Shown piece by piece: positions 3,590 through 61,554 of a stretch of DNA of 63,987 nucleotides. Position 1 is the stretch's first letter. Each line of letters opens with the position of its first letter. The stretch is from a virus, in the IMG/VR virus record IMGVR_UViG_3300047509_000028, positions 1 through 63,987 of that record; one strand, 5' to 3'. The notes below the pieces were generated by a model, which saw only the letters and a program-made list of their open reading frames with translations, did no database searches and was not told where the DNA came from. Position numbers and translations under genes: made by a program.

Positions 3590-4951
3590 TTAAACGTTGG
3601 CGTGTTGGCGAATGCGTGCGATCTGTTCCTCAGTCAACCCTTTCCATACCAGCATGTTCAGACATTGCGCCTCGGAGAAACCAGCCCTTAGCAGGGCTGC
3701 ACCACGTATGCTAGCACGCGGGCTTACTACATGCTTCACGTCGCCGCTTGTCACGATAGCCTTGCGGATACGCTGTACCTTGTTCGTCCATAGGTCGTTG
3801 CCTGCCAGCGCACGCTCGAAGCTTTCATCATACGCCCAGTCCATCATAACAAACCTGTCCGTTGTTGCCTTGTCCAGCTTGTTCCGGCCAACGTAATCAT
3901 GCGTTGCCCCGTTGCCCCATGTGTTCGCGGTAGCGATGATGATGTTATCTGTATGCCGCGTGATCCGCTCACCTGCGAAGTCACACTGTCCGTTCTCAAG
4001 CATCATGCACAGAGCGACTAGCGCTTGCGGACTACCTGCATCCAGTTCATCCATCAGCAGCACCGATGGTACGCCATAACTGCGACTGCACTCAGTCTCC
4101 ACCCGCGCGCCTGTAGCCCCGCGATAGCCTAGCACCTTGTATTCCGTGTCCACCGCGCCGACGTGGTAATACGGGACGCCTAGAGCCTGCGCCACGGCCA
4201 TTGCTGCGCGTGTCTTGCCGGAACCGGCTGGCCCCGGTAGCAGGATCGGATAGCTGTAACCATCGCTGCCCTTCGTGCTAGCTAACTTAAGCAACTCCGG
4301 GAATTGATTATGCTGCACGCCTACGTTGACCGGCTCGCGTTCCCCGTTGTCGCTGCTTACCACGATCTGCTGCGGTAAGTTAATACCCCGCAGTTCCTCG
4401 CGGACTAGCTCACGCACCGCTTCGCTGTCCATGCTTCCGACGCCTAACGCCTCGCGTAATACCTGCGCGAGCGCATCGTTACTAGCAGCGTGCTTGGGCT
4501 TCACGTTCGCCGGTTCGGCTTTCGCTACCGGCTTGCTGTCCTGTTCTGCATTGTACGCTTCTTGCTCGTCATGCGACGGCTCAGGTTCTACCCTGTAGCT
4601 TTCCCCCGGTATCGGTACGTTCTTGCGCACTCCCGGCTTGTTGTATCCGGGATTGGCGTCGCTGCTGTTAATAAACTCCGTCATCGGCTTGCCTTGCTTG
4701 TTCGGTCGTGCCTTGTAAGCTGCCGCGCGTTGCTCCATCGCCGGAACGGCTTGCTCTAGTGCGTCGCGGTGCTGCGGATATTCTCGCAGTAGCCATTCAG
4801 CAAAGTGTGCTTTGCGTGGGGTTTCAAACCGTGTCTGCCAGTTTACGGTGACACCGCAGACGGTCTTAGCTAGCAGTTCAATGTCGCTGGTAATGCAGTT
4901 CGCTATTCTGCACGCGAGGTCACTTGAAAAACTGAAGTTATAGGTAGGCAT
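3590..4951 (-). CDS. MoxR-type AAA+ ATPase
   Basis: 453 residues with AAAGGAAG upstream. Walker A is GPAGSGKT (240-247), Walker B LLMDELD (298-304), sensor 1 IIIATANTWG (around 338-346), and DRFVMMDW follows, as in the MoxR/AAA_5 group. The N-terminal 230 residues are family-specific, with RKNVPIP at 109-115 in a charged linker. MoxR-type ATPases remodel protein partners, often with a VWA or other adaptor. Here the partner is probably the adjacent DUF7192-like protein. Whether the complex acts on virion, host or replication proteins cannot be told. Confidence 0.85.
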   Translation of the reverse strand: MPTYNFSFSSDLACRIANCITSDIELLAKTVCGVTVNWQTRFETPRKAHFAEWLLREYPQHRDALEQAVPAMEQRAAAYKARPNKQGKPMTEFINSSDANPGYNKPGVRKNVPIPGESYRVEPEPSHDEQEAYNAEQDSKPVAKAEPANVKPKHAASNDALAQVLREALGVGSMDSEAVRELVREELRGINLPQQIVVSSDNGEREPVNVGVQHNQFPELLKLASTKGSDGYSYPILLPGPAGSGKTRAAMAVAQALGVPYYHVGAVDTEYKVLGYRGATGARVETECSRSYGVPSVLLMDELDAGSPQALVALCMMLENGQCDFAGERITRHTDNIIIATANTWGNGATHDYVGRNKLDKATTDRFVMMDWAYDESFERALAGNDLWTNKVQRIRKAIVTSGDVKHVVSPRASIRGAALLRAGFSEAQCLNMLVWKGLTEEQIARIRQHANV

Positions 4952-53758: not shown

Positions 53759-53977
53759 TTAAAGTTTATACCACTTTTCTACGTAACTCGGCCCTTCTAC
53801 AGAACCGTCGGGGTACAATATACACCTACCCGACGCAGGTAAACGCCATCTATAGCACTTATACACGCCTAGCACTAAACTTACGGTAGGTTTAGCCCAT
53901 CGCTTAGTTTCTTCGCCGTCGTGATCTATAAGTACGATGCGTCTACGGCCTAGTAATTCAGCTATTCTATTTAGCAT
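53759..53977 (-). CDS. Hypothetical protein
   Basis: 72 residues, overlapping the end of the polymerase C-half gene by 11 bases. Basic (GRRRIVLIDHDGEETKRWAK) with an aromatic C-terminal half. Not recognised. Confidence 0.55.
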   Translation of the reverse strand: MLNRIAELLGRRRIVLIDHDGEETKRWAKPTVSLVLGVYKCYRWRLPASGRCILYPDGSVEGPSYVEKWYKL

Positions 53978-54287
53978 CGCCGTACCTTATAGCCGTACTG
54001 CACTCTACGCCTAGCGGTAGCCCCGGTAAATAATCTGGTGTCGTAGACATAATCCCTATTGCTGCGTCAAGGTACAAATCTTCTTCGTTCTCTGGTACTA
54101 ACGAAACCATTTCATCGTACGTCGTCATTACGACCGGGTAGAGCTTATTTAACTTCGCCTTATGCTGCTTCAAAATAATAGCGCTCACTGCTTGGCAGCA
54201 GTTAGATACCAGAAGGGGTTGGCCGTCTGTGCCGCGCACAGTGAACCTATGGTTTGGGCCTGTATTACGTATGTCGTAGACTTTCAT
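53967..54287 (-). CDS. DNA polymerase, family A, C-terminal half preceded by split-intein C fragment
   Basis: 106 residues. Residues 1-29 are an intein C fragment: VYDIRNTGPNHRFTV (block F) and LLVSN then Cys (block G; Asn29 and +1 Cys30). The penultimate residue is Ser, not the usual His. From Cys30 the sequence is polymerase: CCQAVSAIILKQH then VMTTYDEMVSLVPE, motif C with catalytic D58. Its ATG overlaps the endonuclease stop (ATGA). It is in the same frame as the N-half, about 590 bases downstream of that gene's stop. Confidence 0.9.
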   Translation of the reverse strand: MKVYDIRNTGPNHRFTVRGTDGQPLLVSNCCQAVSAIILKQHKAKLNKLYPVVMTTYDEMVSLVPENEEDLYLDAAIGIMSTTPDYLPGLPLGVECSTAIRYGDAK

Positions 54288-54958
54288 TCTAATCGGTTCC
54301 TTACATCGGGTTCTATGAATAATTTATCTTCGGGCCATCCTGCCATGATGCGGTAACTTAGGGTGGTATGGTTAATTCCATATTCCGTAGCTGCGTCGCT
54401 AAGTAGCATTCTACCTTTAGGAGTATTGACCCATACATTGCTTCGTGTGTTCCCGGTCTGTATCTTTCTTGATACCCAACGACAGTTATTCTTGTTATAG
54501 TTACCGTTATTATCTTCTCTATCTAACGTAAGTCCGGGCATGTACTTTTCTGCCATATCCTCCCAAAAAGCCTCAAAAGTACTCCATCTTTCGCAAACAG
54601 AAATGCCTCTTGCGCCGTAATTAGCGTAAGCTTGGTGGGTAGGCAGACGACACCTATCCTGCATAGATCGCCAAACTGCATACGCAGGATGGTGGGACAT
54701 ACCATGTGTTTTATTACTATCCGATATACCTTGTTTGAGATTGCACCCACAAGATTTTATCTTGCCTTTCGTTAGTTCAGTTCCCGCCATTATCTTTTCT
54801 ACGCCGCAGTCGCAGCGTATAAGCCATTGCGATTTACCTTTACCCGAACCGGCGTAACTAATCGCTTCTAACATGCCGCTACGGAAGCCGGTAATGTCTT
54901 TGGTAAGACGCCGCTGCTTCCTCATAGGTGGTGGTATTGGCTTCTGTCCACTGTTCAT
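54284..54958 (-). CDS. Free-standing HNH homing endonuclease nested in the split polymerase gene
   Basis: 224 residues. The N-terminal zinc-ribbon region is RCDCG...KSCGC. The HNH core is LTLDREDNNGNYNKNNCRWV then SRKIQTGNTRSN, as in phage HNH endonucleases. The start (54958, AAGGTAG upstream) lies 80 bases inside the polymerase N-half gene in another frame; the stop overlaps the C-half start. It is thus a separate protein inside the intein locus, probably responsible for intein homing. Confidence 0.85.
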   Translation of the reverse strand: MNSGQKPIPPPMRKQRRLTKDITGFRSGMLEAISYAGSGKGKSQWLIRCDCGVEKIMAGTELTKGKIKSCGCNLKQGISDSNKTHGMSHHPAYAVWRSMQDRCRLPTHQAYANYGARGISVCERWSTFEAFWEDMAEKYMPGLTLDREDNNGNYNKNNCRWVSRKIQTGNTRSNVWVNTPKGRMLLSDAATEYGINHTTLSYRIMAGWPEDKLFIEPDVRNRLE

Positions 54959-56828
54959 TGATATCTACCTTATGTTCTGGCGTTATCGAAATACCGCCGA
55001 AGTCTATCGTGTCTTGCTCGCCTTGTTCGATTACCCCATCGTGGGGAACCCAAGCGCAGCCGTCCCACAGCAAATCTTCGGGGGAGACTTCGATGATACG
55101 CTTCCAACCGTTCAGAGTCAAGACCTCCGTTTCGGAGCCTATGCAGTTTTCTATGATTTTACCGCCAAAGAGCTTAACAGGTTTAGCGCCATCCAAGTAC
55201 GTCATCCGTCCTTCTACATCTTTCGCTAAGCCGGGATATTTGACGCACAGCCCGCCCGGAAGCAATATCGCAGGCATATCAAACAAGGGATCGTGCGTCG
55301 TAATGACTAAGCTATGGCTTTGCGTCGAAGTCGCTATCGGCAGTTCTACGTCATGCCGTTCATCCAGCATCGCAGTCACCGCCGTATTCGCCTGTCTCCA
55401 AAGCTTCGTCACACCCTTAAAAGTATTTCTATACAGCCGCACAATGCTATTAGCGAATTGTTCATCGACGCCGTTAATTCCGTTCGCCTTGCAGTATTCA
55501 ATGAAGCGTGCTGCACCCATTCCATAGCCTAGTCCAAGTAAGCCTGACTTAGCAATCTGTCGCTCTAAAGGATGCGTTTGTTTAGTGATCTCTACCCCGT
55601 AAATCTTCGACCCGAACCAGCCGTAGATATCTTGGCCCTGTCGCATTAACTCTAGTGCCTTTGCTTCCTCTCCATCTGGCCCGGTAATCTGCATACCCAT
55701 CCACAGCACGAGCCTGCATTCGATCTGCATGTAGTCGGCTACACCGAGGACGTACCCTTCGGGTGCGTAGATTGCCCTGCGCAGCGTTCCGCCGCGTTTG
55801 AGGTTCATGGGGTTGCCCCCGCCGCCCTTGTTGCCGCTGTAGCGCTGCGTAACCTGTGCGCCCGCGTAGTTATAGCCTACAGGCCACGCGCCCCGGCCCG
55901 CCGCGTCCCGGTACAGGATCGCGCGGGTTTCTTCAATCGTGCTTTTCACTTCCAGTCTCGCGGCGACTAACGCCTGCACATCTGGATCGTCGTGTTCTAG
56001 CAAAGCTTTATGTTCTTCGTCCGTCTTGGCAAAGGCGTAGGTGACTTTACCCTTTGCGTTAATCTTCGTTGGCGGCGTCACGCTTAATGCTTCCAGTGCC
56101 TCTGCGTACTTATTGTTCGACATAAGTAAATCACGCGAAGTAAGCCCCGCATTATTCAATGCGTCGATCTTATTTTGCTTTACTTCTTGTATGTACTGAT
56201 CTAGTAGTTCTGCGTCTAGGAAAAGCTGCGGGTTCGTGAATGCTCTAATTGTCCAATCCAACGATGATAGTTCTTCTTTCGGGAAGTGCGGTAAGAGCTT
56301 CTTCGCAATCGCGTTCGTGAGTACTACGTCCCCAGCTTCTAGCATTCCTTTACTTTCGTTCCAGCGTGGCTCACCAACGGTGTAGTCGGCTAAGCGTTCT
56401 TCAATCCACGCTGGTAAGTCTCTGTGATTGTACGCCTTTGATAAGTCATCCATCTTAGTCATGCCGCACAGTTTCTCTGCGACGTACTTAAGACCGTGGC
56501 GCGCTAGGTGCGGGCCTATAAGCGCTCTACTTAATCCTAGCGTGTCGATGTAAAGCTTGGGATAGATGCCGTAGTGCCATGCTAAAATAGCTCCGTCGAA
56601 TTGCAAGTTATGGCCTACTAAAGCGCATTCGTTCCAATCGAATCTAGCTAACGCGGCTTCTACATTCCTGTGGCTTACCCATTTCGCAGGCCCAAAGTTT
56701 AGGCTTACACCGAAGCCGTGGCACTTAAAGCGCGGGTCACGGATATATTTCTCCGTCGTCATGTCTTTGTTTGAAAGACTATAACCGTCACCGTAAAAAG
56801 TTTCTGCGTCGAGTGTGATTAACTTCAC
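54879..56828 (-). CDS. DNA polymerase, family A, N-terminal half plus split-intein N fragment
   Basis: 649 residues, GTG start with GAAGGAG. The 3'-5' exonuclease shows D7/E9 (LDAET) and GHNLQFD (D78). The polymerase domain has motif A GVADYMQIE (D365) and motif B RQIAKSGLLGLGYG (R423, K427). The extein ends GGKIIEN (561). Intein N fragment 562-649 starts at Cys562 (CIGSETEVLTLNGWKRI, block A) and has SITPEHKV (block B, T616/H619). Splicing with the C-half rebuilds ENCCQA, a conserved site, and a 638-residue enzyme. Confidence 0.92.
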   Translation of the reverse strand: MKLITLDAETFYGDGYSLSNKDMTTEKYIRDPRFKCHGFGVSLNFGPAKWVSHRNVEAALARFDWNECALVGHNLQFDGAILAWHYGIYPKLYIDTLGLSRALIGPHLARHGLKYVAEKLCGMTKMDDLSKAYNHRDLPAWIEERLADYTVGEPRWNESKGMLEAGDVVLTNAIAKKLLPHFPKEELSSLDWTIRAFTNPQLFLDAELLDQYIQEVKQNKIDALNNAGLTSRDLLMSNNKYAEALEALSVTPPTKINAKGKVTYAFAKTDEEHKALLEHDDPDVQALVAARLEVKSTIEETRAILYRDAAGRGAWPVGYNYAGAQVTQRYSGNKGGGGNPMNLKRGGTLRRAIYAPEGYVLGVADYMQIECRLVLWMGMQITGPDGEEAKALELMRQGQDIYGWFGSKIYGVEITKQTHPLERQIAKSGLLGLGYGMGAARFIEYCKANGINGVDEQFANSIVRLYRNTFKGVTKLWRQANTAVTAMLDERHDVELPIATSTQSHSLVITTHDPLFDMPAILLPGGLCVKYPGLAKDVEGRMTYLDGAKPVKLFGGKIIENCIGSETEVLTLNGWKRIIEVSPEDLLWDGCAWVPHDGVIEQGEQDTIDFGGISITPEHKVDINEQWTEANTTTYEEAAASYQRHYRLP

Positions 56829-57103
56829 TGATGCTCCTTCATAAACTCGTCACTAACTAACATAGGAATCATTACGCAGTCCATGTGGGCCGGGGCATGG
56901 GCTTTGCAACTCTGATACCGCATCACGACTTGCTCCGGTGTCTGCTGTAAACCAAACGGCCCCGGCATAGGCGCAGCCGGTACAAACTTCTGTAAACCTA
57001 TGCCGAGTAACACGGCGAGCAATAACGCTGTAAAAACAAGCGCGATCCACGCCAACGTCATGTTAGGCTTTGGGTAATCTTTGTATTCATCTTGCAGTTT
57101 CAT
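56825..57103 (-). CDS. Small single-pass membrane protein
   Basis: 92 residues with AAAGGAG. One N-terminal membrane segment (LAWIALVFTALLLAVLLGIG) is followed by a Pro-rich stretch and a soluble part with two Cys (QSCKAHAPAHMDCVM) that would be periplasmic. Overlaps the csrA-like and polymerase genes. Function unknown. Confidence 0.65.
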   Translation of the reverse strand: MKLQDEYKDYPKPNMTLAWIALVFTALLLAVLLGIGLQKFVPAAPMPGPFGLQQTPEQVVMRYQSCKAHAPAHMDCVMIPMLVSDEFMKEHQ

Positions 57104-57975: not shown

Positions 57976-58135
57976 CTAATTTGTTCCTGCGTATAACCAG
58001 AATTCTTTGCCCGGTAAGCCTTCCCGTACGTACTTGTGGGTGGTGATTGCCGCTCCTTCCCTGACTTGTACTGTGAACATGGTGGGAGTGTGGCTGGCAT
58101 ATATTTGCCGTTCCACGGGCCTCCTTTTACGGGTA
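57976..58135 (-). pseudogene. Frameshifted GGPxxG-type small protein gene beside tRNA-Leu
   Basis: One frame reads PVKGGPWNGKYMPATLP directly after the tRNA; the next frame continues TMFTVQVREGAAITTHKYV then REGLPGKEFWLYAGTN and stop. Joined, they match the common phage small-protein pattern GGPxxG ... HxYVRE ... WLYxG. A one-base shift near 58085-58095 separates them, and no start codon precedes GGPWNG because the tRNA ends there. A GTG at 58116 with AAAGGAGG (close spacing) could still express a 46-residue version. Decay after tRNA acquisition is likely. Confidence 0.55.
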
Positions 58136-58216
58136 TCGGGACGGCGGGATTTGAACCCGCATGGATTTCTCCGGCGGCTTTTAAGGCCGCTTTGTCTGCC
58201 GTTCCAACACGTCCCG
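58136..58216 (-). tRNA. tRNA-Leu (anticodon UAA)
   Basis: Class II tRNA. The 7-bp acceptor CGGGACG / CGTCCCG is perfect, with A73. The D-arm TTGGAACGGCAGACA is like that of E. coli Leu-UAA. The anticodon stem GCGGC / GCCGC closes loop CTTAAAA, the variable arm is CGGAGAAATCC, and the T-arm is GCGGGTTCAAATCCCGC. CCA is not encoded. The phage uses UUA codons heavily, which this tRNA would serve. C1-G72 instead of G1-C72 is unusual for Leu. Confidence 0.9.
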
Positions 58217-58222
58217 AACTAT

Positions 58223-61478: not shown

Positions 61479-61554
61479 TGGTGGGCCAGTCTGGAATCGA
61501 ACCAGAATCAATCCGTTATGAGCGGAACGCTTGTAACCAATAAGCTACAGGCCC
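61479..61554 (-). tRNA. tRNA with CAU anticodon (Met or Ile2), CCA encoded
   Basis: Acceptor GGGCCTG / CTGGCCC with one T-T mismatch; D-arm AGCTTATTGGTTACAAGC; anticodon loop CTCATAA on stem TTCCG / CGGAT-type; T-arm TCTGGTTCGATTCCAGA; A73 and CCA encoded. The CAU anticodon can be elongator Met or, if lysidinylated, Ile. The last three codons of the upstream gene (GGC CTG TAG) lie inside the first bases of this tRNA. Confidence 0.8.

What the first reader, a model, noticed from the sequence alone, without database searches (positions are those of the whole stretch)
53967..56828. DNA polymerase gene broken by a split intein with a nested HNH endonuclease gene
The N-half gene ends in intein block A and B (Cys562; T-x-x-H 616-619). 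The C-half gene begins with blocks F and G (29 residues, Asn29, +1 Cys). A separate HNH endonuclease ORF lies between, overlapping the N-half by 80 bases and the C-half start by 4 (ATGA). Both halves are in the same frame about 590 bases apart. Motifs A and B are in the first half, motif C (YDE) only in the second, so activity must need trans-splicing at GGKIIEN / CCQAVSA. Split inteins with free-standing endonucleases are known (fractured genes); I do not know of this exact polymerase A arrangement. The intein C fragment has Ser instead of the penultimate His.
Basis: partly seen in the sequence, partly recalled or inferred. Interest (0 to 1): 0.92.

Follow-up and report, generated by a model that had tools for sequence, protein, structure and literature searches.

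The report
Split intein with coupled endonuclease gene
A phage's DNA polymerase gene is cut in two by a split intein (a self-splicing protein insert) with a DNA-cutting selfish gene lodged in between; about a hundred relatives keep the same cutter hidden out of frame inside one unbroken intein, which shows how such split genes may arise.

Summary
A family-A DNA polymerase gene (minus strand, 53967-56828) ends its first half in an intein N-fragment and starts its second half with a 29-residue intein C-fragment. A 224-aa HNH endonuclease ORF lies between, overlapping the first by 80 bases and the second by ATGA. A 73%-identical viral relative (L001) has the uninterrupted gene with the predicted joint. 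Related inteins show more. Of 108 distinct homologous inteins carrying this kind of HNH gene, none has it in frame. In 100, the HNH gene is nested in another frame while the intein frame stays fully open across it (0 stops; about 480 expected). In eight, including the window (22 stops; 19.4 expected), that frame is closed: the gene is fractured. Four fractured polymerases at the same site share the same ATGA coupling of HNH stop to IntC start, so an assembly error is unlikely. Best explanation: a working trans-splicing intein derived from a cis intein that carried an overlapping endonuclease gene. Fractured genes (Dassa 2009; phage MIJ3) and an out-of-frame HNH insert (ShiLan) are known. The intein version of the overlap and the cis-to-trans series look new, although one preprint could not be read. 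Splicing itself is untested.

The parts
55146..56828 (-). N-extein: DNA polymerase A residues 1-561 (exonuclease region, polymerase motifs A and B), ending GGKIIEN
   Evidence: Pfam PF00476 and PF01612, PHROG 17; collinear with intein-free L001
54882..55145 (-). Intein N-fragment, residues 562-649 (Cys1; block B TPEH); stop TAG at 54879-54881
   Evidence: 50% identical to L094 IntN; HMM match; the family profile hits only inteins in PDB at E below 0.1
54284..54958 (-). HNH homing endonuclease ORF, 224 aa, in frame +1 relative to the intein
   Evidence: PHROG 374 HNH E 5e-63; 47-51% identical to HNH frames nested inside APSE-1, GB2A and SFCi1 inteins
54968..54971 (-). Possible Shine-Dalgarno (AAGG) for the HNH start, inside IntN coding sequence
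   Evidence: sequence; 53 of 59 cis relatives have a start plus SD-like motif for the nested HNH gene, no shuffled control run
54879..54958 (-). 80-base overlap of IntN and HNH reading frames
54298..54302 (-). Possible Shine-Dalgarno (AAGGA) for the IntC start, inside the end of the HNH gene
   Evidence: sequence
54284..54287 (-). ATGA: HNH stop (TGA) overlapping IntC start (ATG)
   Evidence: identical ATGA in the three other same-site fractured loci L094, L175, L187
54201..54287 (-). Intein C-fragment, 29 residues (MKVYDIRNTGPNHRF...VSN), terminal Asn29, penultimate Ser
   Evidence: HMM match; alignments A1 and A4
53967..54200 (-). C-extein: 77 residues from +1 Cys, polymerase motif C (YDE), and stop codon
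   Evidence: 64% aa identity to L001 C-extein with TTYDE kept; PHROG 7766 DNA polymerase

Best explanation
This is a genuine fractured gene. The two halves of the phage's family-A DNA polymerase are made as separate chains, each ending or starting in half of a split intein. The halves associate and splice at GGKIIEN/CCQAVSA to give one 638-residue polymerase. The HNH gene between them encodes a homing endonuclease that would cut intein-free polymerase alleles (such as L001's) and so spread the whole cassette. Translation is probably chained: polymerase-IntN ends 80 bases inside the HNH gene, and the HNH stop overlaps the IntC start (ATGA). The arrangement derives from a cis-splicing intein whose HNH gene lay nested in the +1 frame of a continuous intein ORF. 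Stops then accumulated in the intein frame and an ATG at the IntC start let the C-half be made alone. Shown by sequence: anatomy, homology, joint, frame relations, loss of the open frame, recurrence. Inferred: splicing, endonuclease activity, translational coupling, direction of change.
For: Empty-site allele L001, 73% identical in the N-half, reads straight across the joint. All splicing residues expected for a class 1 intein are present apart from the penultimate His. The family profile hits only inteins in PDB at E below 0.1 (NEQ068 4.5e-6, Mtu RecA intein 5e-5). The closest mini-intein, L171, is modelled at pLDDT 86.7 and its Foldseek matches with E up to 1e-3 are all inteins. 108 distinct HNH-bearing relatives: 0 in frame, 100 with the intein frame open, 8 broken. 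Under synonymous permutation the 65 '+1' cis loci should hold 387 stops and hold 0; the window holds 22 with 19.4 expected. Four same-site fractured loci share ATGA and MKVYD starts. In a cis relative the HNH region read in the intein frame is predicted mostly unstructured (pLDDT 30-63) while both splicing halves are confident. Only one family-A polymerase match was found in the record. No group I intron match.
Against: No splicing or cleavage data. Penultimate Ser could slow Asn cyclisation, although seven cis relatives also have it. C-extein conservation (64%) is lower than N-extein (77%) and dS is saturated, so dN/dS gives no firm test there. The HNH tree cannot say whether the fractured state arose once or several times.
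Confidence: 0.84

Rival explanations
1. Genes in pieces without splicing: the two polymerase halves assemble non-covalently, as in the Aeromonas phage Aeh1 split NrdA, and the intein pieces are inert remnants.
For: An endonuclease-split ribonucleotide reductase that keeps function as two peptides is cited in PMC10448857. No splicing data here.
Against: IntN and IntC keep their catalytic residues and high similarity to cis inteins and to each other across four fractured loci in different phages. Motif C lies in a 77-residue C-extein placed directly after a 29-residue IntC.
Confidence: 0.07
2. Decaying locus: polymerase or intein is a pseudogene in this phage.
For: 22 stops in the old intein frame; penultimate Ser; C-extein somewhat more diverged.
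Against: All three ORFs are intact, with starts, SD-like motifs and catalytic residues. The only family-A polymerase match in the record is this one. N-extein dN 0.17 against dS about 2.7. The same coupled arrangement recurs in three other phages.
Confidence: 0.05
3. Sequencing or assembly error in a gene that is really continuous.
For: Metagenomic virus record; raw reads were not available.
Against: A continuous frame would need 22 false stop codons. Independent contigs L094, L175 and L187 have the same split with the same ATGA.
Confidence: 0.01
4. Recoding: the ribosome shifts frame from IntN into HNH and back into IntC, making one long chain with an in-frame HNH domain.
For: The frames overlap at both joints (80 and 4 bases).
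Against: Good start codons with SD-like motifs at both internal starts; a two-shift scheme must work twice; L175 and L187 have different frame relations yet the same ATGA; cis relatives reach IntC by simply staying in frame.
Confidence: 0.03

Closest known systems
Fractured genes (Dassa et al. 2009, Nucleic Acids Res 37:2560, doi 10.1093/nar/gkp095; citation seen in reference lists, content from memory)
   Same: Conserved DNA-synthesis gene broken by a split intein with a separate endonuclease gene between the halves, in phage
   Different: From memory half of those loci carry a Vsr-like endonuclease; here it is HNH. I could not check whether PolA is among their eight gene types. Here an open-frame cis series of the same element links to the split form.
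Phage MIJ3 split intein with HNH gene in DNA polymerase B (PMC6892783)
   Same: Split intein in a phage polymerase with an HNH ORF between the halves
   Different: Family B polymerase and a different intein (+1 Ser, penultimate His); no overlapping-frame relatives described in the passages read
[quoted passage not shown]
   Same: HNH gene hidden in another frame of an insertion that stays open in the host frame
   Different: Its authors find no intein splicing domain; here the overlap sits inside a recognisable intein, and broken-frame derivatives exist
APSE-1 DNA polymerase P45 with overlapping ORF P46, annotated HNH (NC_000935)
   Same: Homologous intein and HNH gene in the same +1 relation
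   Different: Continuous intein ORF with no stop; insertion three codons upstream of the window's site

Membership tests
Intein (class 1) | Cys/Ser at position 1, block B TxxH, terminal Asn, +1 Cys/Ser/Thr | tested here: met
   C562, T616-H619, N29, +1 Cys
Intein (class 1) | Penultimate His | tested here: not met
   Ser in the window; also Ser in the 3 other same-site fractured loci and 7 cis relatives, His in 92 cis loci. Not universal in inteins (general knowledge).
Intein (class 1) | Hint-fold homology | tested here: met
   Family profile hits only inteins in PDB at E below 0.1; AF2 model of mini-intein L171 matches inteins. Tested on relatives, not on the window pair itself.
Split intein / fractured gene | Two extein halves on separate ORFs each bearing an intein fragment, with endonuclease gene between | tested here: met
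Split intein / fractured gene | Trans-splicing activity | not testable with these tools
   needs co-expression
Overlapping (dual-coding) HNH intein | HNH in another frame while the intein frame stays open | tested here: not met
   Window intein frame holds 22 stops; met in 100 relatives. The window is a broken derivative, not a member.
Homing endonuclease, HNH | HNH family homology with zinc-finger cysteines | tested here: met
   PHROG 374, 3377, 953; conserved C, H and N residues in A2
Homing endonuclease, HNH | Cleaves the intein-less allele | not testable with these tools
   empty site known from L001
Group I intron | Rfam group I intron match | tested here: not met
   no match in 53900-56900

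The most novel reading that the evidence does not exclude
The window is the end point of a traceable series: mini-intein, then an out-of-frame HNH gene nested in an intein whose frame is held open by selection (dual coding), then loss of that open frame once an ATG overlapping the HNH stop lets the C-half be translated alone. Natural split inteins with free-standing endonucleases would then arise from cis inteins that carry overlapping endonuclease genes.
Probability: 0.6. Interest if true: 0.85.

Novelty: new variant of a known kind. Interest (0 to 1): 0.76.

Why it matters
How contiguous inteins become split inteins is an open question. Here both states of one homologous element, with 100 open-frame and 8 broken-frame loci, let the step be tested. 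The overlapping intein/endonuclease genes are a case of selection keeping a second frame open, and the split versions are matched natural controls in which that selection is gone. The four same-site split inteins (29-residue IntC in the window, penultimate Ser, Cys +1) may also be useful as new tools.

Tried and rejected
1. My first idea was that the window is a conventional in-frame HNH intein broken by two frameshifts. Rejected: in APSE-1, GB2A and SFCi1 the HNH lies in the +1 frame while the intein frame itself is open. 2. Group I intron: no Rfam match. 3. Close relatives of the window's C-half in viral contigs: none. 4. A DNA-level scan for the ATGA-MKVYD junction in 2.9 million viral contigs found only the three fractured contigs already known. 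5. The tree cannot resolve one or several origins of the split (AU p 0.356 for one clade). 6. dN/dS of the C-extein was unusable because dS is saturated. 7. A bacterial-genome scan gave two weak intein relatives, not followed. 8. Dassa 2009 and the 2025 actinobacteriophage intein preprint could not be read.

Full report
Observation. The three ORFs exist exactly as described on the minus strand: polymerase N-half 54879-56828 (649 aa), HNH ORF 54284-54958 (224 aa), C-half 53967-54287 (106 aa). Cys562, the block B motif TPEH (T616, H619), the terminal Asn29, penultimate Ser and +1 Cys are present. Overlaps are 80 and 4 bases, the gap is 591 bases, and both halves share one frame. The N-half is family A polymerase with a 3'-5' exonuclease domain, and polymerase families hit both halves.

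The empty site. A viral contig from IMG/VR (L001) encodes the same polymerase, 73% identical in the N-half, as one 643-aa ORF with no intein: LFGGKVTEN-ICQALSA against the window's LFGGKIIEN | CCQAVSA. The predicted spliced window product is 638 aa. The same contig has a ligase 85% identical to the window's, so it is a true relative.

Relatives with one continuous ORF. tblastn found inteins at or next to this site in the polymerases of Hamiltonella phage APSE-1, Caulobacter phages and Shewanella phage SFCi1. SFCi1 shares the window's exact site; APSE-1 and GB2A are three codons upstream. The window's HNH protein is 47-51% identical to a product of these loci. That product lies in the +1 frame relative to the polymerase, while the polymerase-intein frame runs through it with no stop. 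In APSE-1 part of the nested frame is annotated as a separate gene, P46, HNH endonuclease. The window has the same frame relation (polymerase 0, HNH +1, IntC 0), but 22 stops in the intein frame.

How general. Scans of viral contigs and profile searches gave 113 distinct inteins (after removal of exact IntN duplicates; near relatives remain, so they are not all independent). 108 carry this kind of HNH gene: 71 in +1 and 37 in +2, none in frame. In 100 the intein frame is completely open; in 8 it is broken; 5 more are mini-inteins without a matched HNH gene. The loci were found by IntN, IntC and HNH patterns, which do not select for frame. Most hosts are family A polymerases; others are SNF2/DEAD-type helicases.

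Null model. I permuted synonymous codons of each HNH gene, keeping protein and codon usage. The 65 '+1' open loci should then contain 387 stops in the intein frame, and the 35 '+2' loci 95; both contain none. The broken loci match expectation: window 22 against 19.4, L094 4 against 5.6, L187 10 against 11.2, L227 9 against 9.3. The other alternative frame of the same genes holds 2-27 stops in the open loci. Selection therefore keeps the intein frame readable in the open loci and has ceased in the broken ones. This is what continuous translation in one state and separate translation in the other would leave.

Fractured set. The window, L094, L175 and L187 are broken at the same polymerase site. 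In all four the HNH stop and IntC start overlap as ATGA, IntC begins MKVYD, and it ends V-S-N before +1 Cys. Only 3 of 105 open-frame or mini-inteins have an ATG at that position, all of another class. The contigs carrying L175 and L187 have no match to the window's ligase, and L094's contig only a weak one, so these look like different phages. In window and L094 the halves share a frame, as in the open loci; in L175 and L187 they do not, a drift that only a split gene could tolerate. L022, L129, L163 and L227 are broken at other sites.

Splicing fold. The family profile finds only inteins in PDB at E below 0.1. The AlphaFold2 model of the mini-intein L171, a close intact relative of the window's IntN (52% identity), has mean pLDDT 86.7, and its matches with E up to 1e-3 are all inteins. 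In a cis relative (L010) both splicing halves are modelled at about 90, but the HNH region read in the intein frame is mostly at 30-50: it looks like a disordered linker, needed only to be open. TIGR01445/TIGR01443 hits are weak, so standard annotation would miss most of these inteins.

Translation. The nested HNH gene has a start codon with an SD-like motif in 53 of 59 '+1' open loci checked, often made of the codons for the conserved intein motif EGW. I ran no shuffled control for this count. The window has AAGG before the HNH start and AAGGA before the IntC start.

Direction of change. Going from closed to open would need removal of some 20 stops, so open to closed is the simpler direction; this is inference. 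The HNH tree puts the window beside open-frame loci (support 85/87) but does not resolve the backbone; a single origin of the split is not rejected (p-AU 0.356).

Prior work. Fractured genes are established (Dassa 2009, not held). A split intein with HNH in a phage polymerase B is reported (PMC6892783). An out-of-frame HNH in a non-intein insertion is reported (PMC11855218), and that paper cites a preprint on actinobacteriophage inteins with non-canonical architecture that I could not read and that may describe overlapping frames. Novelty is therefore scored as a new variant.

Noticed in passing
L003:840-3821, L004:873-3824, L005:507-3809 and about 97 further loci: Inteins in phage polymerases and helicases with an HNH endonuclease gene nested out of frame inside an open intein frame; two frame classes (+1 and +2). 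Now central to the report.
   Followed up: yes
L022:136-2927: One polymerase appears to need both a split intein (upstream site, fractured) and a continuous intein with nested HNH (downstream site).
   Followed up: partly
L024, L027, L186, L219: Two inteins in one polymerase, one with HNH in +2 and one with HNH in +1, both intein frames open.
   Followed up: partly
L034:1711-5235, L189:2948-5464, L195:3164-5713, L209:3125-5110, L217:586-3888: Same intein type in SNF2/DEAD-type helicases; L034 also has a weak LAGLIDADG-like hit and L217 another Hint/intein hit.
   Followed up: partly
L119:2423-2794, L171:3080-4408, L204:4001-4420, L220:2210-2525: Inteins of the same family with no matched HNH gene; L171 IntN (4001-4264) is 52% identical to the window's.
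   Followed up: partly
window 3590-4951: ORF hits PHROG 249, labelled porphyrin biosynthesis (E 1.7e-39), with weak AAA-type ATPase matches; may be a CobS-like ATPase.
   Followed up: no
window 58135-58217 and 61479-61554: tRNA-Leu (taa) and tRNA-Met (cat) genes.
   Followed up: no
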